DNA from: Nitrospirota bacterium
GTDB taxonomy: Bacteria > Nitrospirota > JACRHL01
Assembly (NCBI GenBank): GCA_016212085.1
Contig: JACRHL010000003.1
Coordinates: forward strand, 1-64,000
Reading direction: 5' to 3'
DNA: 64,000 bases
A program made the position numbers and the translations under genes. Shown piece after piece: positions 3,843-64,000 of the stretch (within the stretch, counting starts at the first letter, position 1; each line of letters starts with the position of its first letter). Under the pieces are notes generated by a model, which had not been told where the DNA came from, did not search any database, and was given only the letters and a program-made list of their open reading frames with translations.

Positions 3843-3843
3843 C

Positions 3844-4590: not shown

Positions 4591-4606
4591 AGCTAAGGAG
4601 CCCCAG

Positions 4607-4954: not shown

Positions 4955-4990
4955 CACCATGGGCGGACCGACCGCCCGCGTTTGGGAGTA

Positions 4991-5401
4991 ATGCAGACCG
5001 TGAAAAGATTCGTGCGGGACATCATGGTGCGCGACGTGGCCACCGTGGACGGCATCGCCACCGTGCGCGAGGCGCTCACGCTGATGAAGCGGCGCCACAT
5101 CAAGAGCCTGGTGGTGAACCGCCGGTCGGAGACCGACGCCTACGGCATCGTGACGCTGTACGACATCGTCAACAAGGTCATCACCCAGGGCAGGCCGCTC
5201 GACATGACCAACGTGTGCGACATCATGAGCAAGCCGCTCATCACCGTCTCACAGGGGTTGCAGGTGAAGTACGCGGCGGGCCTGATGTCGCAGTTCAACG
5301 TGAAGCGGGCGGTGATCATCGAGAACGGCGAGCTGGTGGGCATCGTGTCCATGGAGGACATCGTCTACAGCATGCTCGACGCGGAGGTGGGCGACGGCTG
5401 A
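4991..5401 (+). CDS. Two-CBS-domain protein
   Basis: The 136-residue protein is almost entirely a CBS pair. The first domain starts VRDIMVRDVATVDG and ends YGIVTLYDIVNKVI; the second starts VCDIMSKPLITVSQG and ends LVGIVSMEDIVYSML. Such Bateman modules bind adenosyl nucleotides and often gate membrane transporters. It lies 36 bases after the PII-like gene, so the cluster holds two candidate nucleotide sensors. The ATG at 4991 is used; an in-frame TTG at 4982 and a GTG at 5000 are alternatives, and the GGGAG just upstream sits awkwardly for the ATG. Confidence 0.85.
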   Translation: MQTVKRFVRDIMVRDVATVDGIATVREALTLMKRRHIKSLVVNRRSETDAYGIVTLYDIVNKVITQGRPLDMTNVCDIMSKPLITVSQGLQVKYAAGLMSQFNVKRAVIIENGELVGIVSMEDIVYSMLDAEVGDG

Positions 5402-5416
5402 CGCCCGCCCCCCCCC

Positions 5417-6696: not shown

Positions 6697-6938
6697 CGTT
6701 TTCACCCTGGTTCCCCTTCCGCGCGCCGCCGGCAGAACGCCGTGGCGCGGTTGTAACATATTGATTGCATAGCGCTTACACGGTGAGCGGCGGCGTGTTT
6801 CGGTAAGGGGTGGATTGTAGGCCGCCCCCGGAACACCTGTCAATTTTCCGGAACCGGGCCACACCTCAAGTCACCGCGGGCATGTACCGATGGGAACGTG
6901 ACAACCCATCGGGGGCCCCACGGGAGTTTGGGACAGAC

Positions 6939-9638: not shown

Positions 9639-9674
9639 CCGGCGCCCCCCCCCCGGAACGGGAGCCGCTCCCCC

Positions 9675-9704
9675 TTGAACCCCGGGGGGCCGGAGCGGTA
9701 CGAT
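9675..9704 (+). promoter_or_regulatory. Probable sigma-70-type promoter of the aromatic operon
   Basis: TTGAAC (9675-9680) and TACGAT (9699-9704) are separated by 18 bases. The expected start of transcription is only a few bases ahead of the pheA ATG at 9715, so the leader would be extremely short. There is no room for an attenuator leader peptide. Confidence 0.5.
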
Positions 9705-9714
9705 TTCGGGTTCC

Positions 9715-10794
9715 ATGGAAGCCCTGACCCCCCTACGCAAGCGCATCGACGAAATCGACGAGGCGATCCTGCGCCTGCTCAACGAGCGCGCCGGCGTCGT
9801 GCTCGAGGTCGGCCGCGTCAAGCACCGCACCAACGCGGCGGTGCACGTGCCGGAGCGCGAGGCCGCCATCCTCCAGCGCCTCACCGGCGCCAACCCCGGG
9901 CCGTTCCCCAACGACGCGGTGCGCGCCGTGTTCAAGGAGATCATCTCCTACTGCCTGAACATGGAAGGCCCCATCCGCGTGGCCTACCTGGGGCCCGAGG
10001 CCACCTACACCCACCTGGCGGCGCGGCGCTATTTCGGCTCCGGCTGCCAGTTCGTGCCGTGCGAAACCATTGCCGACGTGGTGCAGGCCGTCGCCAAGGG
10101 CGACGCCATCTACGGCATGGTGCCGGTGGAAAACTCCACCCAGGGCAGCGTGGCCCTCACCCTCGACGAGATGGCCGTTTCCGACCTGACCGTGTGCGGC
10201 GAGGTGGTGGAACGCATCCACCACTGCCTGATGGCCAACGGCACCGACATGGCGGGCATCACCGAGGTGTTCTCCCACCCCCAGTCGCTGGCCCAGTGCC
10301 GCCATTGGCTGCACACCCACCTGCCCGGCACCGTGCTCACCGAGGTGGCATCCAATGCCCGCGCGGCGCAGCTCGCGGCGCGCAAGCGCGGCACGGCGGC
10401 GGTGGCGGCCCGGCTGGCGGCGGAGGTGTACGGCCTGGATGTGCTGGTGGAAAACATCGAGGACAACGCCCGCAACCGCACCCGCTTCTGGGTGGTGTCG
10501 CGGGAGTCGCACAAGGCCTCCGGCAACGACAAGACCTCGCTGCTCATCTCCGTCAAGCACGAGCCGGGCTCGCTCTACACCATGCTGGCCGCGTTCGAGC
10601 GCAACGGCGTCAACCTCATCAAGATCGAGTCGCGCCCGTCCAAGATGGAGGCCTGGGAATACCTGTTCTTCATCGACGTGCTGGGCCACCCGGACCAGGC
10701 GCCGCTGCGCGCGGCGCTGGAGGAGGTGCGGGCGTCGTGCCTGTGGGTGCGGGTGCTGGGCAGCTATCCGGTGCCGCGCGAGCCCCTGGCCTGA
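9715..10794 (+). CDS. pheA: Bifunctional chorismate mutase / prephenate dehydratase (P-protein)
   Basis: This 359-residue protein converts chorismate through prephenate to phenylpyruvate. An AroQ chorismate mutase domain covers about 1-85 (LRKRIDEIDEAILRLLNERA). The prephenate dehydratase domain starts at VAYLGPEATYTHLAARRYFG and ends with NRTRFWVVS, holding the catalytic TRF motif. The ACT regulatory domain follows (LLISVKHEPGSLYTMLAAF) with the ESRP motif that takes part in phenylalanine feedback binding. It heads an operon with hisC, tyrA and aroA. Confidence 0.97.
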   Translation: MEALTPLRKRIDEIDEAILRLLNERAGVVLEVGRVKHRTNAAVHVPEREAAILQRLTGANPGPFPNDAVRAVFKEIISYCLNMEGPIRVAYLGPEATYTHLAARRYFGSGCQFVPCETIADVVQAVAKGDAIYGMVPVENSTQGSVALTLDEMAVSDLTVCGEVVERIHHCLMANGTDMAGITEVFSHPQSLAQCRHWLHTHLPGTVLTEVASNARAAQLAARKRGTAAVAARLAAEVYGLDVLVENIEDNARNRTRFWVVSRESHKASGNDKTSLLISVKHEPGSLYTMLAAFERNGVNLIKIESRPSKMEAWEYLFFIDVLGHPDQAPLRAALEEVRASCLWVRVLGSYPVPREPLA

Positions 10795-50108: not shown

Positions 50109-50323
50109 GCCACCTGGACGGCTTCATCCAGCTCATTGCCCTCCGAGAGCTGGCCGCCGCCAGTGCCCCGCCGCACGTAAACCCAACCACCACGCACGCC
50201 TGGATCGTCACCGATGCGTGCGTGCGTGGTGCGGGCCGAGCCGTCGCGGAACATGCGCCGGAGCGGGTAGGCGAGTACTTGCAGCGCGCACGCCATGCTG
50301 TTCTAGTGGAGCTTGGCCTGTGA
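50105..50323 (+). CDS. Small hypothetical protein, coupled cassette
   Basis: The 72-residue protein (MSHLDGFIQLIALRELAAAS) starts at an ATG that overlaps the upstream stop, and its own stop overlaps the next start (GTGA). It is helical with Ala/Arg-rich character (HAPERVGEYLQRARHAVLVE). No function can be named. Confidence 0.5.
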   Translation: MSHLDGFIQLIALRELAAASAPPHVNPTTTHAWIVTDACVRGAGRAVAEHAPERVGEYLQRARHAVLVELGL

Positions 50324-50634
50324 GGAACGGCCAGGGAAGGTTCCTCAAGGGCTTTTCAGGTAACGCGGGAGGCCGCCCCGCCGTCTTGAGGGGAGTGCGC
50401 GAGCTTGCCCAACAGCACGGCCCGGAAGCCATCGCCGCCATGGTGGACCTGATGCGGTCTGCAAAACTGGAAGCCGTCCGTCTAGCCGCCGCCGAGGCGC
50501 TACTGTCTCGCGGCTACGGCAAGCCGGCCGTTCAGATCGGCGATGGGCCGGACACCCCGCCGTTGACCGTCATCGTCACGAGATACGACGATCCGGAACG
50601 CACCCTGACCAGTCAAATGGAGGCCAACCCCTAG
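50320..50634 (+). CDS. DUF5681-type protein (phage/plasmid cassette)
   Basis: The 104-residue protein starts with GTG at 50320 and opens with GRFLKGFSGNAGGRP, the GRFxKGxSGNxxGRP pattern of DUF5681, a small domain common near terminase and other genes of phages and mobile elements. A helical repeat-like middle (AIAAMVDLMRSAKLEAVRLA) and the tail VIVTRYDDPERT complete it. No terminase follows, so this is a remnant cassette. Confidence 0.65.
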   Translation: MRNGQGRFLKGFSGNAGGRPAVLRGVRELAQQHGPEAIAAMVDLMRSAKLEAVRLAAAEALLSRGYGKPAVQIGDGPDTPPLTVIVTRYDDPERTLTSQMEANP

Positions 50635-50679: not shown

Positions 50680-50734
50680 GTTACCTACAGCGTTACCTAA
50701 AAGCAACAAGGGGCTAGGCCTAACCGACCTAACC
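50680..50734. repeat. Short direct repeats beside the mobile-type cassette
   Basis: GTTACCTA occurs at 50680-50687 and 50692-50699 (12-base period), and CCTAACC at 50719-50725 and 50728-50734. They sit in the 266-base gap after the DUF5681 gene, which holds no other feature. They could be arm-type integrase or replication sites, but no integrase is present. Confidence 0.3.
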
Positions 50735-50900
50735 CATTGTTTTAATTGGCTCCCCTCTGTTGCCAGGTGTAGAACCGGGGCAGGTGTGGCGTCAATGGAG
50801 GTCTGGTTCCGAACGAAGGAAGGCGGGTGTCAGGGGAATACGGTCACTGTACACACGGCCCCGGTACACCTGAGCGTCGGGTAAATGCGACCCTTCCACA

Positions 50901-51746
50901 TTAGAACGGACCATCAAGGTCTTCTGAATACTCCTCCACCGGCATTCCGCCAAGGTTGCTGACCGCCACCGCGGCCTCGATAGCCGGCCCGAACCTATCG
51001 TTGGCGCGGGACGTGTCGATGGACACAATTTGGCGAGTCAGGCTGAACCCTCCGACCAGAGTAGCGCCACCAAGGTATCCCAAAGTCCGGCATACGAAGT
51101 TTCCGAGCGTGCCATCCATCGGCACGACAATGTTACATTCGAACGCCGCCTTGTCGATACGCAGGGGGTAAATATCGCTCCTATACCCCCGTTTTCGCAG
51201 CATCCCAGAAATCTTCTCGGCGTCGTCCAAGCTCTGGTCGACCAACCTCAAATATCCCCTTTCGTTGTCCGCGGCAAGCACACCAATTACAGGCTCGACC
51301 CCAAGCGCTTCACAGATCTTTGCCGCTTGGGTGGCAAGATAGGACCTGCCCGCGACGGATGTGGCGTCGTGCTGAACTACGGGCGTTAGAAACCACTCGT
51401 TTCCGCAAATATCCTCAATTAGACAAGGGCACATCACATCCCGAGGAATATTGAATTGCTCCCTAAAAGCATCATGATAGTAAGAGTAATAGAGTTGCCC
51501 ACGAACTACACCATCAACTTGTCCAGATGCTGCCAATGCGATCAGCTGGTCGGCAGTCGCTTCTTCTCCTCCCGTCGCCGGCACACATTCGTAGCCATCG
51601 ACTTCGGCCCCAACAACAATAACGTCGGCGACACAAGCGCCTTCTCTTAGACTGTCGCGAAATTTTTCCGTGACCTCAACCGCACCAATCCCGATCCGCC
51701 GACGCCTTTTACATGCACTCTGAATCGCGTCACGCAGCCCCCTCAT
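50901..51746 (-). CDS. Phosphotransacetylase/MtxX-like protein, last gene of the ABC-fusion operon
   Basis: This 281-residue soluble protein shows IGIGAVEVTEKFRDSLREGA and VDGVVRGQLYYSYYHDAF (the position of the DG/AFV-K/RG motif in phosphate acyltransferases). A C-terminal LGNFVCRTLGYLGGATLVGG ends in SNLGGMPVEE. This pattern resembles the PTA_PTB fold and its archaeal relative MtxX, which is annotated as a methyltransferase-related marker protein. The match is weak and the enzymatic role is unproven. The ATG at 51746 directly abuts the stop of the upstream fusion gene, so it is translated from the same message. Confidence 0.5.
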   Translation of the reverse strand: MRGLRDAIQSACKRRRRIGIGAVEVTEKFRDSLREGACVADVIVVGAEVDGYECVPATGGEEATADQLIALAASGQVDGVVRGQLYYSYYHDAFREQFNIPRDVMCPCLIEDICGNEWFLTPVVQHDATSVAGRSYLATQAAKICEALGVEPVIGVLAADNERGYLRLVDQSLDDAEKISGMLRKRGYRSDIYPLRIDKAAFECNIVVPMDGTLGNFVCRTLGYLGGATLVGGFSLTRQIVSIDTSRANDRFGPAIEAAVAVSNLGGMPVEEYSEDLDGPF

Positions 51747-54686
51747 CTAGGCCTCCTGTTCGTAGCCACCTACCGAAACAATGGACACTTCTTTTGCAAG
51801 CTTGCCGTCGTCTGCAACTATTACGAATTTCTCCTTTCCATCTGCCTCGCCCCTGACCTCTTTGCGACAAATAACCAGCGAAAAAGAGCCATCGCGAGAT
51901 CTTTTCACACGCAATGACATGTACCCACGAGCTGCCATGTTGTCGCCTCCTGGCCGGTTTTGTTTGTCAGCGCCGATTGACGCAGCGCAAACACACTGGA
52001 CCTTAATCCCGCGATCTTGCGCGCGCGGAGGGGTGAAAGGAATACAATCCGGTAGGTGACCGTGACCCGCTAGAGCGATGGATACGCCTGCCGCATGTAT
52101 GGCTTCCACAACTTCGGTCGCGTTTTCGAGAAAATCAAGTCTGGCCCTCCGTTCCCCCACACTCTCCATCGGGACAGCATTATGGTGCCACACCGCTAAG
52201 CGGACTTTTGCAGTAGTTCCTCTTAACTCTTCACAACCTTCTGTTAGACATTTTGGGTCGATAAACCCCCCATGTTCCGTACTGGATTCACGGTGGGCCG
52301 AGTCAAACGCGATCACGGCGAGTCCGAGGGGGTCACTGAAGTCATGAAGCATCCAGTTCTGGCTGATATCCCACGTTTTTTTTCGCCTGTAGAACTTGTT
52401 GGCAAATTTAGCAAAATGGTAGAGCCTTGTTCCTGGCAGCGCGTTTCCTGCTCGTTCTGAGTCTGCGGTTTCTCGGTTCACGTCATGATTTCCGGGGACA
52501 AGGACCACGCGATCCCGGCTAACCCCATGGCCGTGGGCCTCAAGCTTTTCAAGCAGCGCTTCAAGAAACCTGCCCGCGACTACGTATCCCGTCTCCATTC
52601 CCCTGTTCGTCAGATCTCCTGATACAATGATTACGGACGGTTTCACGGTCCGCCCCCTTTTGATATCCTGTGCCACATCGTCGGCGAGTAACTGGGCGAC
52701 CTTCTTGGCATCGTCTTCGGTCTTAATGACTTGCTGCCCGGCTTGAATGTCCGAGAGGTGCAAAATGCCGACCTGTTCTTCGCCCTGGCCCAATTCCTCA
52801 CGTTTGACAGATGCTTCGGGTGTCGTAAGGAATATTTCCTCCACATACTCGTTAAAAAACAAATCGACAAAATTCCACAAGAAGTCCTCCGTCGAGTCCG
52901 GTAGCCGATTGCGCGCGGCAATCAAAAGGCCGAAGGGGTCCCCCTTCTGCCGGTCCGACCGTAGAGGGGCAGCGAACACATAGATGACAGGTGGCGAATC
53001 AACGTCAGCATGAACGAGCGGCGATGCCTTCACGAACCGTGAAAGTGCCAGACAAAAGGCTTTGTGTGCCTCGAAATCGAACGAGAGGATGCCGGGGTTA
53101 ACGATCTCCTTTTGCACGAACCCAAACAACGGTCCTTCAGTCGCTAGCGCGGTTTGTATGAACTCGTTCCCTCTGTCACCGTCAGGGGCATTGTTGAGAA
53201 TGTCATAGACTTCTCCACGAATCCGGATGTGGTGGATGGCCGGGTGAACGTGAGCCCGATGCTCGGACGAGAGGTTTCCGTCTCCCTCTTTGTCGCCTCC
53301 ATTGGCCGCGGAGCCATCAAACGAGAGGAGGAATGGCTCGGAGGACTCCAAGTTCGAGGCGAGATTTGACCACTGTCTTTCTAGTTCCGCACACAAATCG
53401 CTCTGTTGATCCTGGTAGGTCCTTTCCGAAACCTCTTGGTCTTCAAAGGGTGCGTACGCGTAGGCCGCAAAAATTTTCTCACTTCCCTGCAGACCCGTCT
53501 CGCAAAATGGGATGGAGAGCGCTCCGCTCTTGGACGTATGCATGCGCTCCCACGTCTTGCGAAAGAGACGGCCCCACAACGTCTTTGGATTGTATGTGGG
53601 GTCGAGGCGACGTCTCCACCTTCTCCCAACGGTGTCCCTCGCGACGTCAAGCAGCAGGCGGTCAGCCTTGGAGGCTGAGAGGTCTTTTCGGTCTCCGGAA
53701 GGACGGGTCAACGTTCGAGCTTGTAGGTGAAATTCCGGGCTCCACGTGTAGTTTGAGTTGATACCATGACAACGATGCTCATAGAGCCGTTCGAGCTCGG
53801 CCGCCACCCTTTGAAACGCTTCCGAAGCCTTTTGGTCATCAGGAAAAAGCCTCGTGTTGGTGAACGCGCGTTTCCGAACAACGAGATCAATCAAAGTTCC
53901 GAGTTTAAACGGATGTACCCAATCGTCCTTTTCCCTGCACGTTTGTGGAGACTCCCAGCCAAGCGCTTCGAACATCTGGTCAACACGCTTGTCCACAACG
54001 AGACTTCCTAGTCGATGACGCGGTACAAGCACGGAGGCATTTCCAAATAGGTTGTTGGCTATCGCCTGGTGCCGTGCAAGGACGTCCATCCAGAATTGCC
54101 GGATATATCCGTCCGTGACCGCTGCAACATTGCCGTCGATCGCATCGTAAAGTTCGGACGTTTCTTTGAAGAGAAAGATCATCCCTTTGTCGGAGAGAAC
54201 CCTATCCAGAGCATAAATAGCCACACGCCAGTCCGACATCACATGGAACACCCAATGCGCAAGTACGGCGTCGTACTTACAGTCAGTAGCGTTAAGATCG
54301 CGAATATCCTTTCGGGCGGTTTCAAATATTACGAGTTCCTTCATGGGAACCTGATGGTTACGCCATGTCTCTTTCTTCTGGGAGCAACGCTTCAGCATCG
54401 GCTCGGAGCAGTCGAGACACGTAATGTGGAGACGCGGCGGGGCCTTCACGGTGGTTGCAGCGGTGCAATAGCGATCTGCAAACTGGTAGGCGATCCGACC
54501 GGTTCCAGAACCCGCATCGAGCAGTGAAATTTTATCTGCCCCACGGAAACGTTCCAGTAGTTGCTTGCAAAGGTCCGTGATCGCTGGAGAATCGCTGCCC
54601 AGTTTTGGGAAAGGGCGTGTCTTCTCATAAATGTCTGCTATATCTTCGCCGAAATAGACTCGGTTATCTTGAGAGATCTGCGTCAT
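51747..54686 (-). CDS. SAM methyltransferase - metallophosphoesterase fusion protein
   Basis: This 979-residue protein has a class I methyltransferase at about 1-310, with SAM loop LLDAGSGTGRIAYQFADRY (55-73) and CLDCSEPMLKRC after it. Residues 320-640 have no domain I recognise. The calcineurin-like phosphoesterase at about 641-925 has D646 in ILHLSDIQAG, D691 in VIIVSGDLTNRG, N733-H734-D735 in LVPGNHDVNRE, H834/H835 in AVWHHNAV and H875/H877 in ALAGHGHLPD, so all metal ligands are present. The ATG at 54686 overlaps the permease stop (ATGA). Codon use is much lower in GC than the backbone. This domain pairing is unfamiliar to me. Confidence 0.85.
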   Translation of the reverse strand: MTQISQDNRVYFGEDIADIYEKTRPFPKLGSDSPAITDLCKQLLERFRGADKISLLDAGSGTGRIAYQFADRYCTAATTVKAPPRLHITCLDCSEPMLKRCSQKKETWRNHQVPMKELVIFETARKDIRDLNATDCKYDAVLAHWVFHVMSDWRVAIYALDRVLSDKGMIFLFKETSELYDAIDGNVAAVTDGYIRQFWMDVLARHQAIANNLFGNASVLVPRHRLGSLVVDKRVDQMFEALGWESPQTCREKDDWVHPFKLGTLIDLVVRKRAFTNTRLFPDDQKASEAFQRVAAELERLYEHRCHGINSNYTWSPEFHLQARTLTRPSGDRKDLSASKADRLLLDVARDTVGRRWRRRLDPTYNPKTLWGRLFRKTWERMHTSKSGALSIPFCETGLQGSEKIFAAYAYAPFEDQEVSERTYQDQQSDLCAELERQWSNLASNLESSEPFLLSFDGSAANGGDKEGDGNLSSEHRAHVHPAIHHIRIRGEVYDILNNAPDGDRGNEFIQTALATEGPLFGFVQKEIVNPGILSFDFEAHKAFCLALSRFVKASPLVHADVDSPPVIYVFAAPLRSDRQKGDPFGLLIAARNRLPDSTEDFLWNFVDLFFNEYVEEIFLTTPEASVKREELGQGEEQVGILHLSDIQAGQQVIKTEDDAKKVAQLLADDVAQDIKRGRTVKPSVIIVSGDLTNRGMETGYVVAGRFLEALLEKLEAHGHGVSRDRVVLVPGNHDVNRETADSERAGNALPGTRLYHFAKFANKFYRRKKTWDISQNWMLHDFSDPLGLAVIAFDSAHRESSTEHGGFIDPKCLTEGCEELRGTTAKVRLAVWHHNAVPMESVGERRARLDFLENATEVVEAIHAAGVSIALAGHGHLPDCIPFTPPRAQDRGIKVQCVCAASIGADKQNRPGGDNMAARGYMSLRVKRSRDGSFSLVICRKEVRGEADGKEKFVIVADDGKLAKEVSIVSVGGYEQEA

Positions 54687-55453
54687 TGCCCACTCCAGTG
54701 AATCGCAAGCCGCTCGATAACGGACCCCAAGACTGCGGCAACGTAGCCGAGGAGGCCGACAACGACTATGGCACCGTACATTGTTGATGTGTCGAACACG
54801 GCAAGCGCATCCATGATGATCTTTCCGATTCCGGCGTCGGTCGCGATCAACATGTCGGCTGCCACGGCAACGATGAGCGCGATGGGGATTGCAGCCTTCA
54901 AAGCGACCGCCATGTGCGACACGGCTGCAGGGAGAAGAAAGTGCGCCACCGTCTGCCACCAGGATGCTCGCCAGGCGATCGCTAGCCGGAGATGTGCCTG
55001 GCTCGCGGAGCGAAGTGCCGTCCCAGCGGTCGATACCAAAAGGGCGGCGACCACGATGGCGGAACACGCGAGGCGGGAGGACGCGCCGACGCCGAGAAAG
55101 AGGCTAACGAGCGGGACGAGAACCACCGATGGCAACGCACGTAGGAACTCAACCCATGGCTCAACCGCGGCCCATACGAAACGGTTGACGCCAACCAATA
55201 TTCCCGTCGTAGCGCCAACAAGTGTCCCAACGAGTATCCCAGCCAGCCACGTCCACACAGTCGCGGTTAGGTTCTGCCAGAACCCCGCACTCCCTGCCAA
55301 ACGCACCAAGGCTTGCCCCACATCCAAGGGGGATGGAAGCAGGATCGCCGGAACTAGGTTGAGTACGATGACTCCCTTCCAAAACAGTACAAGTAACACC
55401 CCCCCGGCCAGTACCGAAAGCGCACGTTGCCACCATGGGAGGGAGCTATACAT
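54683..55453 (-). CDS. ABC transporter permease, SsuC/TauC type
   Basis: This 256-residue membrane protein has about six segments. The BPD_transp_1 hallmark is AWRASWWQTVAHFLLPAAVS followed by ALKAAIPIALIVAVAADMLI, the EAA-type loop that contacts the ATPase. The N-terminus (LPSPLDVGQALVRLAGSAGF) matches the SsuC/TauC/ThiX style. It overlaps the ATPase gene by eight bases and the fusion gene by four. Confidence 0.92.
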   Translation of the reverse strand: MYSSLPWWQRALSVLAGGVLLVLFWKGVIVLNLVPAILLPSPLDVGQALVRLAGSAGFWQNLTATVWTWLAGILVGTLVGATTGILVGVNRFVWAAVEPWVEFLRALPSVVLVPLVSLFLGVGASSRLACSAIVVAALLVSTAGTALRSASQAHLRLAIAWRASWWQTVAHFLLPAAVSHMAVALKAAIPIALIVAVAADMLIATDAGIGKIIMDALAVFDTSTMYGAIVVVGLLGYVAAVLGSVIERLAIHWSGQ

Positions 55454-56108
55454 GATTGCCCAGCACCTTTTCTGCGCGGCCCCGGTCGACCTCCTCCAAG
55501 CAGCCGCCGTTTATGGCGAAGAACCGGGTAAATGGAAGGTCGAGGTCGTCGGGATCGTGCGTGACCACGATCGCGGTCCGCTCCTCGAGCCACTCGGTCA
55601 GTACCTGCTTTGCGATGGACCGCAGATCATGGTGAAGCGATGTGAGAATTTCATCGATGAGGGCAAGCGAGCAGGGTGTGCAGATGGCGCGAATAAGGTT
55701 GACAGCCTGTTTTTCCCCCCCGCTCAGCTTGTACGGAAAGTCGTGCATGCGGCCGGCTAGTCGAAGGGACTTCAGAAGGTCCTGCGATCGGGCTACAAGC
55801 CCATCGTCAGCCGCATCGTTGAGTCGGGCCGGAAAAAGGATGTTCTCGGCAACAGTCCGCCATGGCAAGAGTCCGCTCGCGGAATCCTGGACCGCATACG
55901 CCACCGGTTGGTCCGGATGCCGGCGAACGAGCGTTCCTGCGGAGAGGGGCCGCACGCCGGCGACAACGTCGAGGAGCGTCGTCTTGCCTGATCCGTTGGG
56001 CCCGACCAGGAGAGCGACATCGCCGCACTCCAGGCGTAACGTGAGATCCAAACGCCTCTCACCGTCACGGGCAAGGGCCACCTGTCCGTGGTCGATGGTG
56101 AGCATCAT
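55446..56108 (-). CDS. ABC transporter ATP-binding protein
   Basis: This 220-residue ATPase has Walker A in LLVGPNGSGKTTLLDVVAG, the Q-loop in AYAVQDSASGLLPWRTVAEN, and the signature KLSGGEKQAVNLIRA. Walker B is LALIDEILTSL (Ile replaces the usual first Asp-flanking Leu, but D and E are present), and the H-loop is VVTHDPDDLDLP. The start overlaps the substrate-binding gene's stop (ATGATG). It is one half-transporter ATPase with a single permease, so it probably works as a homodimer pair. Confidence 0.93.
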   Translation of the reverse strand: MMLTIDHGQVALARDGERRLDLTLRLECGDVALLVGPNGSGKTTLLDVVAGVRPLSAGTLVRRHPDQPVAYAVQDSASGLLPWRTVAENILFPARLNDAADDGLVARSQDLLKSLRLAGRMHDFPYKLSGGEKQAVNLIRAICTPCSLALIDEILTSLHHDLRSIAKQVLTEWLEERTAIVVTHDPDDLDLPFTRFFAINGGCLEEVDRGRAEKVLGNHV

Positions 56109-57088
56109 CTCCCGTAAAGCCCCGGCGGGAAGAAGTCAGACAGGTCGATCTGTTCGTCCAAGAGGCCCGCGGATACCAGCGCATCCACGGTGGCACCTAT
56201 TCCCTCCAGCGGAACGACCTCGTTACTCCTCGGGAAATAGTAGCCACCCATCTGCGAGGCCACCTTCTCGTCAATGCCCAGTCGCTTTGCGAGTACGCGG
56301 TGTGCCGATTCTGGATCCGCTTGGATGCGGGCGAGAGCATCGTCAACAGCTTCCATCACTCGGACCAGATCATCATGTCGCTCGTTCCACCGCTCCCGGG
56401 TAACCGCGCCCGCGCCGCTCCAGTAAGGCGAGCCGATGTGGCGTGCACGGGGATTCGCCTCGAGCAACCGGTAGTCTCCCGACGCCAGCGCGACGGCAAG
56501 CGCGGGCTGATCCATGATCGCGGCCTGTGCCGTACCGTCGGCGACAGCGCCGAGGGCCGCTTCTCGGCTTGCCACACGAATCTCAGGCCATTCGTTTCGC
56601 GGGATGCCCGCCGAAGTCAGGATAGTGCGGATGTTGACCTGGGTGTACGGGTTGATCGCCATGACAGTACGGCGACGAAGGCCATCAAGGCCATCACCAC
56701 CAAAATCTTTGCGAACAATGAAGCCATAAACCGTTGGGCCGTTAAGTATCTCCGCACCGGGAAATACGGCATATACAGCCCCGGGATGTTGACGCATCAC
56801 CCCAAAGAGGACTGGAAACGACGTAGGGCTCAGGATGTCCACGCGTCCCGATAGAAGCGCCGGCATATGGTCTCCCGGGGGCACTTCCACCAGCTCGACT
56901 CGCACATTGTGGGGCTTGAACAAGTGAAATTCGTCCGCGATGTAGATGGGAAGTGAGCTTTCATGTTTAAGAACACCGATCCGAACGACATCAACGACTG
57001 TGGAGGAAGGGCGTATGAAGAAGTAGGCACCCACCATAAGCCCAATAACCAGGGCTGCGGAGATAACGATGGAGATGCGTCGATTCAT
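56105..57088 (-). CDS. ABC transporter substrate-binding protein, NMT1/TauA/SsuA type
   Basis: The 327-residue protein has an uncleaved-looking N-terminal anchor (MNRRISIVISAALVIGLMVG). Typical family segments follow: VVRIGVLKHESSLPIYIADE, FHLFKPHNVRVELVEVPPGD, LLSGRVDILSPTSFPVLFG and DGTAQAAIMDQPALAVALAS. Such proteins bind aliphatic sulfonates, taurine, thiamine precursors or similar ligands. There is no lipobox. It heads the five-gene operon. The ligand is not predictable from these motifs. Confidence 0.87.
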   Translation of the reverse strand: MNRRISIVISAALVIGLMVGAYFFIRPSSTVVDVVRIGVLKHESSLPIYIADEFHLFKPHNVRVELVEVPPGDHMPALLSGRVDILSPTSFPVLFGVMRQHPGAVYAVFPGAEILNGPTVYGFIVRKDFGGDGLDGLRRRTVMAINPYTQVNIRTILTSAGIPRNEWPEIRVASREAALGAVADGTAQAAIMDQPALAVALASGDYRLLEANPRARHIGSPYWSGAGAVTRERWNERHDDLVRVMEAVDDALARIQADPESAHRVLAKRLGIDEKVASQMGGYYFPRSNEVVPLEGIGATVDALVSAGLLDEQIDLSDFFPPGLYGR

Positions 57089-57180: not shown

Positions 57181-57444
57181 CTACTGCGCTTCGTTTACTT
57201 CTGGCGCCCTTGCTGACGGGTACGTCACCCCAAATATGGTATCCGTCAACCACTTCCGCGAAAAAGCGCAAAAAGGGACACCACCCTTTCTTGGGCCCTT
57301 CCCGAAATCCTCCACGGACATGAGGGCTGCCAGCACCGAAGACGTGATGCGCCGCTCCTTCGAGCCGTTCGCGACGGACGGGATCATCCGGGCCCGCTCC
57401 CCCTGCCTGAGAAACCTCGGAAGGTCCGGGGAAGCTTGTGCCAT
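57181..57444 (-). pseudogene. Truncated gene remnant at junction of the operons
   Basis: An open frame of 87 codons starts MAQASPDLPRFLRQGERARM. Its first 50 or so residues (continuing SKERRITSSVLAALMSVEDF) read like the N-terminus of a family of restriction-associated nucleases, but that is recall, not a search. From about 57300 the sequence changes character and the frame ends in an unrelated tail. It follows the dcm gene in the same direction after 96 bases, so the last gene of the defence operon was probably cut off here. The 57089-57180 stretch holds no gene. Confidence 0.5.
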
Positions 57445-57540: not shown

Positions 57541-58563
57541 TCAGCCGAGGACGGAGGTGATCTCGGAATCCTCGGATTCTGGCTCCGGCAGCATTTCGCC
57601 ACCCGTGAGAGTCTCCACCACGGCCTTCATTACCGGCGCACACACGCCGTTGCCGAGCAGCTTGATCTGGTCGCGGCGGGATCCGTGCCGCATCACATAG
57701 TCGGCGCTGAACCCCATCGCCTTCCGGAGCTCCGGCACCTGCAGCATCCTCAGGGTGGGGGTCTTCCCGTCCCACCGGACCAGGCCGAACCGGTCGAGCG
57801 TGGTCATGGTGCGCAGCGGCCGGCCAAGCGGCTGCCAACCGCCGGACCCGTCGCTGCCGTAGTAGACGATCAGGAACGGCTCGCCCTTCCCGATCTGGGC
57901 GATGGCACGTTCGGCCCGCTCCAGCGTCGGAGTCGCTCGGCGGGGGTGATAAAGGGGGCCGGCATGCCATGAGCCACTCCAGTCGATCACCCTCCGGGCG
58001 GGCACGCCCCCACCCGGCCCGACGACCGGTGGCACCTCACGTTCCCGGTCGCAGACGATGAACAGGCGCCGCCGCGTCTGCGGCACGCCGAAGTCGGCGG
58101 CGTCCAGAACCATGTCCTTTACCGAGTAGTCACGCCCAAGCCACTCCAGGAGCCCCGCAAACCCTTCCCAGCTCCGCATCTGGATGACGTTCTCGATCAC
58201 CACCCAGCGCGGTTTGAACGCCTCGACGAAGTCCAGGACGTAGAGGGCGGTCCGCCGGCTCTCCTCGTCCCTCTCCCGGCTCCCGCGGGCGCAGGTGTGG
58301 TTGGTGCACTCCGGGGACGCGATGATAAGATCGATCGGGCCCGCGCCGTCCAGGCTGTCGGGTCCCGTACCAGCCCCGAGCTTGGCGGTGACGGCCAGCG
58401 CCTCGGGGAAATTGTCCTGGAAGGTCTCGGTCGCCACCTCCCACATGTCGACGCCGCACACGATCTCGGCCCCGGCCAAGCGGGCGCCGTAGCTACTGCC
58501 GCCCCCGCCGCAGAAGAGGTCGAGGGTCCTCGGCCGCACGATTTTCTTCCCCGATCCGGTCAA
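57541..58563 (-). CDS. dcm: C5-cytosine DNA methyltransferase
   Basis: This 340-residue enzyme transfers a methyl group to cytosine C5. Motif I is LDLFCGGGGSSYGARLAG, motif VI is VVIENVIQMRSWEG, motif VIII is QTRRRLFIVCDRER and motif X is LLGNGVCAPVMKAV. The motif IV nucleophile is C86 in ASPECTNHT, where the usual Pro before Cys is Glu. Start and Vsr stop overlap (ATGA). The target recognition region is short (residues 185-260). It is part of the defence cluster. Confidence 0.9.
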   Translation of the reverse strand: MTGSGKKIVRPRTLDLFCGGGGSSYGARLAGAEIVCGVDMWEVATETFQDNFPEALAVTAKLGAGTGPDSLDGAGPIDLIIASPECTNHTCARGSRERDEESRRTALYVLDFVEAFKPRWVVIENVIQMRSWEGFAGLLEWLGRDYSVKDMVLDAADFGVPQTRRRLFIVCDREREVPPVVGPGGGVPARRVIDWSGSWHAGPLYHPRRATPTLERAERAIAQIGKGEPFLIVYYGSDGSGGWQPLGRPLRTMTTLDRFGLVRWDGKTPTLRMLQVPELRKAMGFSADYVMRHGSRRDQIKLLGNGVCAPVMKAVVETLTGGEMLPEPESEDSEITSVLG

Positions 58564-59021
58564 GTCGCATCCTCCCCCGGCGCCCGCCCGGCCCCCGGAC
58601 TGGGATTCTGCCAGGTTTCACCCCCCGGCGCCAGGTCCGAGCGCAAAAAAATCCGGCGAAGGCAGCCCTCGGCGTCCCGGTCAAGCTGGTGCTCCCAGAT
58701 CCGGACTACACGCCACCCCATCCGCCGCAGCTTGCGGTGGTTGCGCGCATCCCTCCTGCGGTTCCGCTCGATCTTCTCCTCCCATTTCAGGGAGAGCTTG
58801 TCCCGCCAGACCGGGAAGCGCCAGCCGTGCCAGAAATCGCCGTCCACGAACACGGCCACCTTCTGCTCGCGGAAGACGAAATCCGGCCGGCCCGGCAGGT
58901 CCCGCGAGTGCGACTCCCACTCGAGCCCGTGTTCCCGCAGACCGGCGGCAACGGTGCGCTCGGGACCGGTGTCCTTCCCCCGGATCCGGCTCATCACGGC
59001 GCTCCGGGTCTCGGGCGACAT
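58560..59021 (-). CDS. vsr: Very short patch repair endonuclease Vsr
   Basis: The 153-residue protein opens with MSPETRSAVMSRIRGKDTGP, the conserved Vsr N-terminus. It holds DLPGRPDFVF with the catalytic Asp D47, VAVFVDGDFWHGWRFP with H65, and the C-terminal WRVVRIWEHQLDRD. It nicks beside T:G mismatches made by deamination of 5-methylcytosine, which fits the adjacent dcm. An earlier in-frame GTG at 59096 is possible, but the ATG at 59021 matches the family. Confidence 0.92.
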   Translation of the reverse strand: MSPETRSAVMSRIRGKDTGPERTVAAGLREHGLEWESHSRDLPGRPDFVFREQKVAVFVDGDFWHGWRFPVWRDKLSLKWEEKIERNRRRDARNHRKLRRMGWRVVRIWEHQLDRDAEGCLRRIFLRSDLAPGGETWQNPSPGAGRAPGEDAT

Positions 59022-59117
59022 GATGTCCCCGCGGTGACGACGGGGGCGTTGTGGGCTATCGTCCCGGCGCGTCCCAGTGGTGGTGTGGTCGGCCACTGTC
59101 AGGGCACCCGGCGACCT

Positions 59118-61187
59118 CTACCCACCCTGGAACCCTTCGGTTTCCATGCGGTCCCGGATTTCCAGGAGCGCGGCGCTCTGCCGGTCAGTCGGGATCGATG
59201 CCGGCATCCGCGCCGCAACGCCGACGAGGCTTTCGTCCCGGCCGGACAGGAGGTTCCTCTGCCGGGCCCAGGCATCGAGCGTCGACCAGTATTCCGCCCC
59301 CAGGTTGACCACCTCCGTCTGTGCCTCGATTCCCGAATCGACCCGCTGCCGGGCCCTGGCCTCCCTCCTCACGGCTCGGACCTCGTCCTGTCCCGCCAGT
59401 TCCCCGATGAGTTCCTCGACAAGGCGCACGTCGCTCTCGCATACGCGTTGCCAGCAGATCTCCTTCTTGCACCATTCGGTCACGTTCTGGAAGCCGTGCT
59501 GCGGCGCGACAATGACATCGAAGACTGCCCCGGCCACGACGGCGAGCTGCGCATCCAGGGCAGGCGTCACATCCTGTCTCGCCCAGATGGCCCGCAGGTC
59601 GAGCGCCCTGCCGGGAGCCCAGGTTTCGATCAGCGAGACGAGCCGCGCCACCGTATAGGCGACGATGTTCGCCCGGTAGCCCCCCTGGTACCAGGGCTGG
59701 CGGCTCACCAGCCGCTCCGTGTGGCGGAAGATGATCGCCCTCGCCACCGCGTTCTTGAAGAACTCCTCGTTGAAGTCGGTCGGAGATTGCGTCCACCTCT
59801 TTCCGACCCACTCGGCGAATTTCAGGAAGTTCTTCTGGGCCCCGAGGCTGACGGTGTGGGGAAGCCCCCGCCATGCATTCTCGTACTTGGCCAGGTCGGT
59901 CTTCGTGATCACCTGTTGCCGCGGGTTCTGGTGCACGAACCTTCTTTTCTCTGCCGGCGTGAGCGTCACCTGGGCGTTCAGGTACTGCCCGCGGGCCCGC
60001 TCGTAGAACCAATGGGTCTCGTGTTGCGCTCCGCCTGTCGCCGGCGCCCAGATCCTCCTCGATATGTCCTCGATCCGCACATGGAATGGATGGTTGGAGA
60101 AGAAATCGGCGTCACTGACCTTGTTCTGACTGTTGGCGCAGTAGGCGATCCGGGGTATGACCTCCTCGGCCCGGGCTGGTGTGACGACTGACAGCTTCAT
60201 CTGGATGAAGATGCCTGCCAGCTCGGCCCGGTCCTTGCGCCGCGCCGCCGCGAGGGACACTGTCGTCTGGCCTCCATTGACGATCTGCAAATCGGTCGCG
60301 CGCAACAGTCGCAGACCATGGGGAACGCGCTCGGCCGTCGCGTTGGTCGCGGTCGCGGCGATCCCGTTGTTGTACACGAAGAACATTCCGGGCTCGTTCA
60401 GGATGCTGGTCCGGATGTTCTTGTTGACCTTCCCCCTGGTGCTGAGGAACGACCGGACGTTCCCCTCGAGAAGCCGGCTTCCGTAGCGATCGTAGATGTC
60501 GGAAAGGACCCCGCCCGGGATCACGCAGAGGTATGCATCGTACTCGCCATCCGCTTGGCTGGCATCGAGGCACGGGATGCCGCCCTCGACGAACTCCGTG
60601 AAATCGACCTCGAGCTCGTCACGGCCGACCCCGGACTCGAAGACGCGGTGGAAGCGGGCCACATCCCATATGTGGAACTCCACGGGCCGCCCCACCATGG
60701 CGTCTTCCGGCCAGTCCTTCACGCGGCTGCTCAGCACGGCATCCGTCAGGAGAAACGCGCGGAAGCGCGTAATCTCCTGTTGCCGGAGGTGAAGATCGAT
60801 TGCGAGACCGTAGCCGGGCGAACTCTCCTCGATCGTCTGGTGCAGCCTGCCGGACACGGCGTCCTCGACAAATGTCCTCAGCAGGCCGAATGATCTCGTG
60901 GCGTCCGTCTGGGTAAGTGCCGGCGCCGCGTCGCTCCCTGAATAGTCGGCCACCACCAGCGAGACCGAGCCATCGACGTCATCGAAACCGAACCCGTCGA
61001 TGCGCATCTTCCGGCTCCTGCTGCCGGTCCCCTGGAAGTGGCACGGTTCGAAGTCGGCCAGTTCCTCGGCTTCGACTAGTCTTCTGCAGGCCTCCGCAAC
61101 GAACGAGGCCTCCTCGAAGTCGCCCTCCGCCGCCGCGAGGGCAAGCACCGTTTCCAGGAAGTCCTTCCTGAAGTCTTGCAGTTCCAT
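59118..61187 (-). CDS. AIPR (abortive-infection phage resistance) family protein
   Basis: This 689-residue protein has the AIPR hallmark ATDLQIVNGGQTTVSLAA near residues 298-313 and FFVYNNGIAATATNATA just before it (about 269-285). The N-terminal 100 residues resemble the DUF-type front of these proteins. AIPR members are linked to phage resistance and to Z1/DUF4420 restriction systems. The ATG at 61187 (MELQDFRKDF) has GGGAAGG upstream; the frame open further is leader. It lies eight bases after the DUF4420 gene. Confidence 0.86.
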   Translation of the reverse strand: MELQDFRKDFLETVLALAAAEGDFEEASFVAEACRRLVEAEELADFEPCHFQGTGSRSRKMRIDGFGFDDVDGSVSLVVADYSGSDAAPALTQTDATRSFGLLRTFVEDAVSGRLHQTIEESSPGYGLAIDLHLRQQEITRFRAFLLTDAVLSSRVKDWPEDAMVGRPVEFHIWDVARFHRVFESGVGRDELEVDFTEFVEGGIPCLDASQADGEYDAYLCVIPGGVLSDIYDRYGSRLLEGNVRSFLSTRGKVNKNIRTSILNEPGMFFVYNNGIAATATNATAERVPHGLRLLRATDLQIVNGGQTTVSLAAARRKDRAELAGIFIQMKLSVVTPARAEEVIPRIAYCANSQNKVSDADFFSNHPFHVRIEDISRRIWAPATGGAQHETHWFYERARGQYLNAQVTLTPAEKRRFVHQNPRQQVITKTDLAKYENAWRGLPHTVSLGAQKNFLKFAEWVGKRWTQSPTDFNEEFFKNAVARAIIFRHTERLVSRQPWYQGGYRANIVAYTVARLVSLIETWAPGRALDLRAIWARQDVTPALDAQLAVVAGAVFDVIVAPQHGFQNVTEWCKKEICWQRVCESDVRLVEELIGELAGQDEVRAVRREARARQRVDSGIEAQTEVVNLGAEYWSTLDAWARQRNLLSGRDESLVGVAARMPASIPTDRQSAALLEIRDRMETEGFQGG

Positions 61188-61195
61188 GCCTTCCC

Positions 61196-62146
61196 TCAAG
61201 CCGTCGCCGGCCGGGACTCGAATGGCAAAATCGCCCGGAGCTCGAGCTCCCACGTGACCTTTCCGATGCCTGCGGGAAGCAGCGAACGGCGGATGGCCGG
61301 AAACCCCTCCACCAAACGGAAAGTCCTGAACCGTTCGAACACGTAGGCGCGCTCGCCATACTCCCCGCGCGCCACGAAACCCGCTTCCATGAGCCTGCCC
61401 TCGAACGTCTCCAGCGCAACGGGATCGTGCTCCACGACCTGTCTTACCCTCTCCACGATCCCGAGCGGCGTGAACGCCTCCGGATGGCTGCGGGGATCGG
61501 CCTCATCCAGCACGACGATGACGAGGTCGAGCGACCCTTCCGGTACGTCGAGCTGCTCTTCTGACGAAATCAGCACGCGGTCAGCGCCGGTGAGAATGGT
61601 CTTGATCTCGCACTCGTGCCCCGGGAACCTGAAGTCCCGGTCCGCTCCTGCCGGTCCGACCCATCCGGCCACTGCTTCCCGCAGCCCTCTCGACGGAATC
61701 GCCTGTCTCTCCAGGAAAAGGAGCTCCCCGATCAGGCCCTTCAGCGCGGCCTCGCCGAGAAGTCCCGAGTGGCCAAGCTCCAGGAGCCGCTGCCAGCGGG
61801 CGAATCTCGCCAGCACGTAGGATGCCGAACGTGCCGGATCCGGGATGTTGCGACTCGCTTCGACCAGATCCTCGCAGAGGAGCGCGAACAGCTTCCCGAG
61901 CTCCGGCCGAACCAGACGGAACAGCAGCGCCCACCGGTCATCGTTGCGCTGGCGCCGTATCACATGGATCGCCTGGTACTCCCGCGACGAGATCGGCTGC
62001 TCCTGGGTGACGAGGAGGAGCGCCCATTCCCCCGACGCCTCCTTGCCGAGGTAGAAGTCCAGGGGGTGGGATTCGTCGACGCGCTGGAAAGCCGCTCCTT
62101 CGGGATGTGTCGGCATCTCCCGCCACCGGGCCTCAAATGCCATCAT
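61196..62146 (-). CDS. DUF4420 PD-(D/E)XK nuclease-like protein
   Basis: This 316-residue protein carries a probable nuclease core: GLIGELLFLERQAIPSRG with E141, then GADRDFRFPGHECEIKTILT with D169/D171 and the E180-x-K182 pair. DUF4420 proteins are predicted PD-(D/E)XK nucleases in restriction systems. The start at ATG 62146 has GGAGGCGG ahead and overlaps the Z1 gene's last codons (ATGATGGCATTTGAG). Confidence 0.85.
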   Translation of the reverse strand: MMAFEARWREMPTHPEGAAFQRVDESHPLDFYLGKEASGEWALLLVTQEQPISSREYQAIHVIRRQRNDDRWALLFRLVRPELGKLFALLCEDLVEASRNIPDPARSASYVLARFARWQRLLELGHSGLLGEAALKGLIGELLFLERQAIPSRGLREAVAGWVGPAGADRDFRFPGHECEIKTILTGADRVLISSEEQLDVPEGSLDLVIVVLDEADPRSHPEAFTPLGIVERVRQVVEHDPVALETFEGRLMEAGFVARGEYGERAYVFERFRTFRLVEGFPAIRRSLLPAGIGKVTWELELRAILPFESRPATA

Positions 62147-64000
62147 CTTCCGCCTCCGGTTCGTCATCAACCTCCATGTCGAACATGTTCCGGAAGGCGA
62201 CCAGATTGATGTCGTACCGGACGCGCCTCGCCACGCTGGTGTCGTCGAAGCGGGGGAAGCTGAGCCCGAGCGCTACCAGCGGCTGCCCGCCCGTATCCAC
62301 ACGGTTCCCTTCCTCGGTCGGGGCGATGAGGTGGATCAGCAGAAGCGGGCGCTCCCTGTGCCTGCGGTACTCACTGTCCGGAATGCTCTTGCCGCCGCTG
62401 GCGACCCGGTATTCCTCCGCTATGCGGTGAACGTCCTCGGTCCGCAGGCCTTCCCGCTCGATCCCGCGAGAACCCACGCGCCTGCTTCGGCCAGACACGA
62501 GGATGGACCTGGTGGCCGCATTGACCGTCACCTTCCGCCTCTGCAGTCGGCAGCGTACCCCGGCGAACTCCGTCTCCTCCTCCTTGCCGCTGGGCAGGAG
62601 GACATCCCAGGACGCGAGGCACGGCTCGTCCGTATTCTCCAGGAAGGCGGCGAGAAAATCCTGCTGGAACACGAAATCCAGCGGGTGGCTGAGGAACCGC
62701 CGCAGCATCGAGGCAACGGAGGTCTTCGGGACACCGTGCCATATCGTGTTTCCCCACGGCGACGTCTCGTGCGGGATGCCGGCGGTGGCGAGTCCGTCGA
62801 GGAATTCCGCGGCGGCCTTGGCGTTCGCGAGAATGGTAGCGACATCCGACCGCAGCTGCGGTGTCTCCAGTCCCTCGCCGCTCACCGAGATCACCCGTTC
62901 GATTTCCGTGGCCATGCGCATCTTGTTCCTTGCGGTGACCAGCAGGGAGTCGGGATGCGACCGTACCTTCAGGCCGAAGTCCTTCGGCGTGAGGTCGAAG
63001 GCCCGCATCCGGCGGATCTCATCCCTCAGTTCGTCTGTTGCGTTGGCGATGTGCGCATACCAGTGGACCGCCTCGTCGGTGAGCCAGACCCGGCAGAGGT
63101 CGCCGTACCCGTCGCGGTAGCCGAACCAGCGCCCCATCTGCAGGAGGGTGTCGTACATCTGGGTGTTGCGGAAGAAGTAGCTGACACAAAGGCCCTCCAG
63201 CGTGAGACCGCGCGAGAGGCTGTTTCCGCCCACGGCCACCACCCGAAGCCCGGAATGGCGGTGCGCCGCGAAATCGAGGCTGGCGGTCCCGGTCCGCTGG
63301 TTGACAGCCTTCACGACTACGGGGAGTGCCGCGTCGACGAGCGCGGACTGGATCGCATGCCAGTCGGGGCCTGCATCGGCAAACTCCCGCCCCCAGGTCT
63401 CCTGCAGCAGCAGGATATTCCGATTACGCATGGCTTGGTCCACGGGGAGGCGGCTGTAGTTGCGGATATCCTGCTGCATCTGCCGGACTTCCTGGTCCAG
63501 CAGCTCGGCCACCTGATCCTGCACGTTGGTGAACCGACTCACGTTCACGAGCATCGAGCGATGGCTCGGTCCCTCTCCGCGAAGATCCCGGACCGCATTG
63601 GCCAAGACGAACGTCCTCAGGGCCTCGTAGAGGCTGCACGGCAACTCGTCCACCACGTACCCGGAGCGATGGCTGGCCGGGAAGTGCGACTCGGCGTCAT
63701 CGATCTCGCGCAGGCAGTCCAGCCGCGGGTCGTCGCCGAAAACCTCCCGGGGACCGACATAGTTGGTGGGTGGCTCGAGCGCGTAAATGAAGTCCCTCGG
63801 AAACAGGTCATTTCCGCGCATCTCGTCCTCGGTGTCCGGATCGATGAAGATGTTCGCGAACGGCGTGGCCGTGAAGCCCACGTAGCTTGTCCTGGTGAAG
63901 AGCCGGAGCAGGGCCCGGACACGCTCATTGATCGCCGTGGGATCCCGCGTGTTCGGGTTCGTGTTCACGGATGCGTTGTCCGCCTCGTCGTCGATCAGCA
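62133..64000 (-). CDS. Z1-domain SF2 helicase-like protein (5' part outside window)
   Basis: The frame runs off the right edge of the window, so the N-terminal Walker A part is missing. The visible part begins LIDDEADNASVNT (Walker B, DEAD), then SYVGFTATPFANIFID (motif III). The Z1-type C-terminal segment contains GGNSLSRGLTLEGLCVSYFF, MYDTLLQMGRWFGYRDGYGD (motif VI Q-x-x-G-R) and WLTDEAVHWYAHI. Z1 domains occur in restriction and stress systems with MORC/MutL-like ATPases. The GTG at 63968 is not the start because the DEAD motif lies just ahead of it. Confidence 0.87.
   Translation of the reverse strand, partial: LIDDEADNASVNTNPNTRDPTAINERVRALLRLFTRTSYVGFTATPFANIFIDPDTEDEMRGNDLFPRDFIYALEPPTNYVGPREVFGDDPRLDCLREIDDAESHFPASHRSGYVVDELPCSLYEALRTFVLANAVRDLRGEGPSHRSMLVNVSRFTNVQDQVAELLDQEVRQMQQDIRNYSRLPVDQAMRNRNILLLQETWGREFADAGPDWHAIQSALVDAALPVVVKAVNQRTGTASLDFAAHRHSGLRVVAVGGNSLSRGLTLEGLCVSYFFRNTQMYDTLLQMGRWFGYRDGYGDLCRVWLTDEAVHWYAHIANATDELRDEIRRMRAFDLTPKDFGLKVRSHPDSLLVTARNKMRMATEIERVISVSGEGLETPQLRSDVATILANAKAAAEFLDGLATAGIPHETSPWGNTIWHGVPKTSVASMLRRFLSHPLDFVFQQDFLAAFLENTDEPCLASWDVLLPSGKEEETEFAGVRCRLQRRKVTVNAATRSILVSGRSRRVGSRGIEREGLRTEDVHRIAEEYRVASGGKSIPDSEYRRHRERPLLLIHLIAPTEEGNRVDTGGQPLVALGLSFPRFDDTSVARRVRYDINLVAFRNMFDMEVDDEPEAEDDGI

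What the first reader, a model, noticed from the sequence alone, without database searches (positions are those of the whole stretch)
50901..57088. Five-gene operon pairing an NMT1-type ABC transporter with a methyltransferase-phosphoesterase fusion and a PTA/MtxX-like protein
Every junction overlaps or abuts (8, 4, 4 and 0 bases), so five proteins are made from one message: substrate-binding protein, ATPase, permease, a 979-residue SAM methyltransferase/metallophosphoesterase, and a phosphate-acyltransferase-like protein. I know no system with this set. It sits between a mobile-type cassette and a defence operon and is lower in GC than the backbone, so it was probably acquired. Possible readings are uptake and remodelling of a small metabolite, or signalling through a phosphodiester messenger.
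Basis: partly seen in the sequence, partly recalled or inferred. Interest (0 to 1): 0.78.

Follow-up and report, generated by a model that had tools for sequence, protein, structure and literature searches.

The report
ABC-importer operon with MtxX-like protein
Five tightly packed, acquired genes combine a nutrient-type membrane importer, a two-enzyme fusion protein and a relative of a mysterious methanogen protein; a rearranged version beside another antiviral system in an unrelated bacterium suggests an undescribed system of unknown function.

Summary
Five intact minus-strand genes (50901-57088) overlap or abut by 4, 8, 4 and 0 bases and lie between terminator-like hairpins. The operon is lower in GC than the backbone and than the neighbouring MZA defence operon, and lies at the edge of a prophage/defence region. 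The last gene is homologous to MtxX/Mmp4, a methanogen marker with a phosphotransacetylase-type fold, but belongs to its own bacterial subfamily with a changed putative active site. The fusion protein (methyltransferase, unknown middle, metallophosphoesterase) has no full-length homologue in anything searched; its phosphoesterase is nearest to that of the anti-phage system DS-9. The exact five-gene set does not recur, but the plan does. In a Phycisphaerae genome, the only close MtxX-like relative found (about 64% identical) ends an operon of SBP, permease, ATPase, a 777-aa orphan and a haem-oxygenase-fold protein, with the same 4/8/4/0 junctions, convergent with a type III CBASS. The importer there is of another family. 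The constant part is therefore importer + large soluble protein + MtxX-like protein, not the fusion. Best reading: a rare modular system carried in defence islands, coupling a ligand at the membrane to cytosolic small-molecule chemistry; anti-phage function is plausible but unproven, and metabolic cargo is the main rival.

The parts
56105..57088 (-). Substrate-binding protein, NMT1/SsuA type, with an uncleaved-looking N-terminal membrane anchor (hydrophobic residues 7-25, no lipobox)
   Evidence: PF09084 24.1 bits (cut-off 20.5); SsuA_fam 3.3e-10, below its cut-off; hydropathy (printed before the script stopped)
55446..56108 (-). ABC importer ATPase; Walker A GPNGSGKTT, signature LSGGE, Walker B and H-loop present
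   Evidence: PF00005 6e-20; best NCBIfam matches SaoA/TauB-type importers; motifs read in the sequence
54683..55453 (-). ABC importer permease, TauC/SsuC type
   Evidence: PF00528 3.5e-12; TauC/SsuC 5e-19 to 7e-19; several hydrophobic segments
51747..54686 (-). Fusion protein, 979 aa: class I SAM methyltransferase (motif LLDAGSGTGR, residues 55-64), middle region about 290-635 with no family, calcineurin-like metallophosphoesterase (residues 641-910; motifs SDIQ 645, GDLTN 690, GNHD 732, WHH 833, GHGH 874)
   Evidence: Pfam; NF053862 DS9_1 anti-phage phosphoesterase 3.1e-27, below its cut-off; motif positions; middle region without a Pfam match even at E 10
50901..51746 (-). MtxX/Mmp4-like protein (Pta-type fold family), bacterial subfamily
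   Evidence: TIGR03270 1.4e-23; PDB 9nzy MTH_231 3.8e-12; about 64% identical to the Phycisphaerae relative
57270..57291 (-). Terminator-like hairpin between the MZA/Dcm unit and the SBP gene
   Evidence: consensus scan only; 13 such sites found against 8.1 expected
50711..50735 (-). Terminator-like hairpin after the MtxX-like gene (10-pair stem)
   Evidence: consensus scan only
57541..64000 (-). Neighbour, not part of the unit: MZA defence operon (MzaB, MzaC, MzaD, MzaE) with Dcm-type methylase and Vsr; runs on to about 66.3 kb of the contig
   Evidence: PADLOC; Pfam AIPR, Vsr, DNA_methylase

Best explanation
It is one acquired transcription unit and the second-found version of a rare, modular system carried in defence islands. 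A membrane ABC importer with an anchored binding protein captures a small ligand. In the cytosol that ligand, or the signal of its capture, meets a large soluble protein (here methyltransferase + phosphodiesterase) and an MtxX-like protein of Pta-type fold, which is the constant component. The phosphoesterase most likely cleaves a phosphodiester small molecule such as a cyclic or linear nucleotide, as proposed for the anti-phage proteins DS-8 and DS-9. The MtxX-like protein most likely binds a phosphorylated or CoA-like ligand and supplies or regulates that chemistry. I think a role in conflict with phages or other mobile DNA somewhat more likely than plain nutrition. Shown by sequence: the gene set, intact catalytic motifs, foreign base composition, the recurring plan and the defence neighbours. 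Inferred: single message, ligand chemistry, order of steps, defence role.
For: Gene set, junctions and motifs. Foreign base composition, different even from the adjacent MZA operon. Same plan in Phycisphaerae OFTM250 (L040): SBP, permease, ATPase, 777-aa orphan, haem-oxygenase-fold protein, MtxX-like protein 178/274 residues identical, with 4/8/4/0 junctions. The MtxX-like pair is under purifying selection: counts pN 0.22 against pS 0.72. It forms a fully supported pair 2.85 changes per column from the rest and replaces residues invariant in archaeal MtxX while keeping RG and DGxxGNxxxR. Defence neighbours in both loci: MZA here, type III CBASS with HORMA and TRIP13 there. Phosphoesterase nearest to DS9_1; its catalytic residues are needed for defence in DS-9 (PMC13092281).
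Against: Only two loci are known; one is a metagenome-assembled genome. The importers are of different families, and the large proteins are not detectably homologous. ABC importer operons are common, so one of the two could carry an importer by coincidence. Defence islands also carry other cargo. The phosphoesterase match to DS9_1 is far below the family cut-off (95.6 of 420 bits), and the HAD partner of DS-9 is absent. No experimental data exist.
Confidence: 0.42

Rival explanations
1. Metabolic cargo: the operon imports a small organic compound (sulfonate, amine, amino-acid or nucleoside analogue) and modifies it by methylation, phosphoester cleavage and a Pta-like step. It merely travels with mobile DNA.
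For: The SBP and permease are of the SsuA/TauC family. The Phycisphaerae version has an amino-acid/ectoine-type importer and a haem-oxygenase-fold protein related to 4-aminobenzoate synthase/CADD. The own genome has no PTA_PTB gene, so the MtxX-like protein is not redundant.
Against: The enzyme partners differ completely between the two loci while the MtxX-like protein stays about 64% identical. The phosphoesterase is nearest to a defence clade. Both loci touch a defence system. A 979-aa enzyme fusion is unusual for a catabolic operon.
Confidence: 0.35
2. Chance adjacency: separate genes (an ordinary importer, a DS-9-like defence protein, an MtxX-like gene) brought together by transposition in a defence island, with no joint function.
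For: No full-length homologue of the fusion; different partners in the second locus.
Against: Overlapping junctions throughout, similar composition across the unit, hairpins at both ends, and the same plan and junction pattern in another phylum.
Confidence: 0.13
3. Cofactor or methyl-transfer pathway related to the methanogen role of MtxX (C1 or corrinoid chemistry), with the importer bringing a C1 substrate or cofactor precursor.
For: MtxX is a methanogen marker, co-transcribed with mtxA and mtxH in some methanogens (PMC3087415); the fusion has a SAM methyltransferase.
Against: The archaeal invariants GIDEG and SGGRxxDxGR are replaced here. No mtxA, mtxH or corrinoid gene was seen in either operon. 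The importer and the other gene products do not match between the two loci.
Confidence: 0.1

Closest known systems
MtxX / methanogenesis marker protein 4 (TIGR03270; MTH_231, PDB 9nzy)
   Same: Homologous over most of the protein; keeps RG near residue 82, DGxxGNxxxR at 211-220 and DTSR at 244-247
   Different: Bacterial, about 26-35% identical to the archaeal ones, below the family cut-off; putative pocket motifs replaced (VVQHD for VGIDE, AADNERGY for SGGRxGDxGR); importer operon instead of methanogen context
Phosphotransacetylase/phosphotransbutyrylase (PF01515)
   Same: MtxX family alignment matches Pta-type proteins over 239 columns (probability 97, E 1e-10)
   Different: No Pfam PTA_PTB match; the Pta loop GPLAFDNAIS has no counterpart in the family alignment; no acetate kinase partner seen
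Anti-phage systems DS-8 and DS-9 (metallophosphatase; PMC13092281; NF053862)
   Same: The phosphoesterase domain of the fusion is nearest to DS9_1 (3e-27); motif residues present
   Different: No HAD phosphatase partner, no NACHT; methyltransferase fused in front; ABC importer genes in the operon; score far below cut-off
SsuABC/TauABC (NMT1-type) importers
   Same: SBP, ATPase and permease of this class, one gene each
   Different: Anchored SBP; linked enzymes are not desulfonating oxygenases; scores far below the equivalog cut-offs

Membership tests
MtxX/Mmp4 (TIGR03270) | Match above the curated cut-off (190 bits) | tested here: not met
   83.3 bits, E 1.4e-23
MtxX/Mmp4 (TIGR03270) | Residues invariant in archaeal MtxX | tested here: not met
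   RG and DGxxGNxxxR kept, but GIDEG and SGGRxxDxGR replaced
MtxX/Mmp4 (TIGR03270) | Methanogen or alkanotroph genome and context | tested here: not met
   Bacterial loci; no mtr or mtx genes seen alongside
Phosphate acyltransferase (PTA_PTB, PF01515) | Pfam PTA_PTB match | tested here: not met
   No match at E up to 10 for the window protein
Phosphate acyltransferase (PTA_PTB, PF01515) | Common fold family | tested here: met
   hhalign of 81 MtxX-type sequences with Pta-type proteins: probability 97, E 1e-10; the bacterial pair alone only E 0.003
Phosphate acyltransferase (PTA_PTB, PF01515) | Catalytic loop with Asp (GPxxxDxAxS) | tested here: not met
   Loop falls in an alignment gap for the MtxX family; the role of the loop is from established knowledge
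DS-9 anti-phage system | DS9_1 phosphoesterase above cut-off (420 bits) | tested here: not met
   95.6 bits, E 3.1e-27
DS-9 anti-phage system | HAD phosphatase partner gene | tested here: not met
   None among the five genes
DS-9 anti-phage system | Metal-binding catalytic residues present | tested here: met
   SDIQ, GDLTN, GNHD, HH, GHGH present; the His-to-Gln variant in the first motif also occurs in the hits L010 and L015
DS-9 anti-phage system | Protects against phage | not testable with these tools
   Needs experiment
NMT1/SsuABC-type ABC importer | SBP, permease and ATPase of the class, with working motifs | tested here: met
   PF09084, PF00528 and PF00005 over their cut-offs
Known defence systems of PADLOC 2.0 | Hallmark protein match | tested here: not met
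   Only weak phosphoesterase, methyltransferase or generic ABC matches

The most novel reading that the evidence does not exclude
A new class of bacterial conflict system in which a ligand-specific ABC importer acts as sensor or supplier for an MtxX-like Pta-fold switch protein that drives exchangeable cytosolic effectors (phosphodiesterase-methyltransferase here, an orphan 777-aa protein plus haem-oxygenase-fold protein elsewhere).
Probability: 0.25. Interest if true: 0.85.

Novelty: categorically new. Interest (0 to 1): 0.6.

Why it matters
No described system that I could find joins a nutrient-type ABC importer to an MtxX-like protein. MtxX is itself an old puzzle: present in nearly all methanogens, function unknown. 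A bacterial subfamily with a fixed operon plan and exchangeable partners gives a handle on what this fold does and can be tested in ordinary laboratory bacteria. If the unit is defensive, it would tie small-molecule uptake at the membrane to immunity and to the phosphodiesterase branch opened by DS-8 and DS-9. The novelty rating is provisional: it rests on two loci and on the absence of a matching description in the libraries and papers searched.

Tried and rejected
Close relatives by exact peptides of the window's MtxX-like protein or fusion in viral and genome contigs: none. Motif patterns from an MtxX alignment: nothing in viral contigs; the genome scan gave 309 relatives, of which the best 80 were kept: one bacterial, 79 archaeal by title. 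The motif alignments held hand-made rows, used only to widen the pattern. ABC genes beside archaeal MtxX: in Jordarchaeia these are opposite-strand ABC-2-type exporter genes, judged unrelated. MtxX-like gene in G353: stands before a PEP-utilising-type protein, no importer. More carriers in the order and phylum of the Phycisphaerae genome: none in 113 and 391 other genomes. My by-eye idea that the C-terminus of the 777-aa protein is a diadenylate-cyclase domain was not supported by HMM or hhalign. AlphaFold2 of that region and of the fusion's middle gave pLDDT 36 and was not used. Prophage att repeats: only chance 12-15-mers, so the left prophage border is not placed. A first Pta extraction read the wrong frames and was redone. 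A first reading of L010/L015 as the DS-9 type was not kept: they have a receiver-like N-terminus and a different upstream gene, while DS-9 is phosphatase + HAD.

Full report
Observation. The five genes are real, intact and on the minus strand: SBP 56105-57088, ATPase 55446-56108, permease 54683-55453, fusion 51747-54686 and MtxX-like 50901-51746. Junctions are overlaps of 4, 8 and 4 bases and one exact abutment. Terminator-like hairpins lie on both sides (57291-57270 and 50735-50711); these are consensus matches only (13 found, 8.1 expected by shuffling). One message for all five is therefore likely but inferred.

Domains. Pfam gives NMT1, BPD_transp_1 and ABC_tran for the importer, and Methyltransf_12 (56-170) and Metallophos (641-877) for the fusion; the region between has no match even at E 10. 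NCBIfam gives DS9_1 anti-phage phosphoesterase (3e-27, 95.6 bits, cut-off 420) for the C-terminus and MtxX/Mmp4 (1.4e-23, 83 bits, cut-off 190) for the last gene. The only solved relative of the last gene found by sequence is MTH_231, PDB 9nzy. Catalytic motifs of the methyltransferase, phosphoesterase and ATPase are present.

Setting. Upstream on the same strand is an MZA operon (MzaB, C, D, E) with Dcm and Vsr. Beyond it lies a lambda-like prophage with terminase, capsid, head protease, tail protein J, repressor and a large serine integrase at 102650-104236 of the contig. The prophage's left border could not be placed, so the operon may lie inside or just outside it. GC3 of the five genes is 0.58-0.72, MZA 0.80-0.88, backbone 0.94-0.96: a separate, foreign acquisition.

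Distribution. The window's class holds only four genomes in the collection, and the other three lack the MtxX-like gene. Of 396 genomes of the phylum, two have an MtxX-type protein: this one and G353, where it stands before a PEP-utilising-type gene. None of the other 395 has the fusion; hits there are isolated phosphoesterase or methyltransferase domains. A motif scan of about 85,000 species genomes found 309 MtxX relatives and kept the best 80: 79 are archaeal by their titles, at 26-35% identity, and one is bacterial, at 63%. In the Planctomycetota genomes searched afterwards no second carrier appeared.

The second locus. That bacterial relative, in Phycisphaerae bacterium OFTM250 (L040), ends an operon of SBP_bac_3 protein 3716-4579, permease 4576-5256, ATPase 5249-5932, a 777-aa orphan 5929-8262, a haem-oxygenase-fold protein 8263-8937 and the MtxX-like protein 9001-9831. 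The junctions are 4, 8, 4, 0 and then a 63-base gap. The importer is of the amino-acid/ectoine type and its subunit order differs from the window's; the 777-aa protein shows no convincing similarity to the fusion (E 0.02 over 85 residues). It converges on a type III CBASS with cyclase, SAVED nuclease, HORMA and TRIP13. The MtxX-like pair shares 178 of 274 aligned residues, 94 of them with different codons; pS 0.72 (near saturation), pN 0.22.

The constant component. The two bacterial proteins form a fully supported pair, 2.85 changes per column from the rest (long branches, placement among MtxX uncertain). They keep RG(82-83), DGxxGNxxxR(211-220) and DTSR(244-247) but replace archaeal invariants GIDEG and SGGRxxDxGR with QHD and AADNERGY. 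The MtxX family as a whole matches Pta-type proteins by profile comparison (probability 97, E 1e-10, 239 columns), but the Pta loop GPLAFDNAIS falls in a gap, so ordinary acyl-phosphate chemistry should not be assumed. The host genome has no PTA_PTB gene. MtxX function in methanogens is unknown (PMC3087415).

Function. DS-8 and DS-9 show that metallophosphatases of this broad type can be essential for phage defence, probably by cleaving an unidentified phosphodiester (PMC13092281). This, and the defence neighbours of both loci, make a conflict role plausible. The importers and the haem-oxygenase-fold enzyme keep a metabolic role open. I put the conflict-linked small-molecule reading at 0.42 and metabolic cargo at 0.35. 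Literature searches found no description of an importer-MtxX system; the library is open-access only.

Verdict. Observation confirmed; interpretation partly supported, with the emphasis moved from the fusion to the MtxX-like protein and the operon plan. The main weakness is two loci only, one of them a metagenome-assembled genome.

Noticed in passing
contig G000:C15 66853-104236 (right of the window): Lambda-like prophage with serine integrase; between capsid (L037 10944-11960) and tail protein J (L037 2017-3720), where tail-assembly genes would normally lie, plus-strand genes for a HerA-like ATPase, a DNA methyltransferase and two unknowns occupy the stretch, probably a second defence insertion.
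   Followed up: partly
window 57541-64000, on to about 66300 of the contig: MZA defence operon (MzaB-E) with a Dcm-type methylase (close to the DISARM DrmMII model in PADLOC) and Vsr on the same strand.
   Followed up: yes
L040:5929-8262: 777-aa orphan protein of the Phycisphaerae operon; by eye its C-terminus has diadenylate-cyclase-like motifs (DGAIVL, GTKARTA), but HMM and hhalign did not support this.
   Followed up: partly
L010:1039-2481 and L015:937-2406: Receiver-like domain fused to a metallophosphoesterase, preceded in both genomes by a long gene whose C-terminus looks like a degenerate histidine-kinase ATPase; a possible two-component-like defence pair.
   Followed up: partly
L035:4560-6817 (G353): Isolated MtxX-like gene overlapping a PEP-utilising-type gene, absent from the other 176 genomes of its order that were searched.
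   Followed up: partly
window 50218-50634: Plus-strand 138-aa ORF matching phrog_15261 (6e-11) and weakly a phage terminase small subunit (3e-4), next to the low-GC operon.
   Followed up: no
window 50901-51746 and L040:9001-9831: The bacterial MtxX-like pair shares cysteines at residues 12, 106, 108, 145 and 204 (MCPC motif); a metal or cluster site is possible.
   Followed up: no
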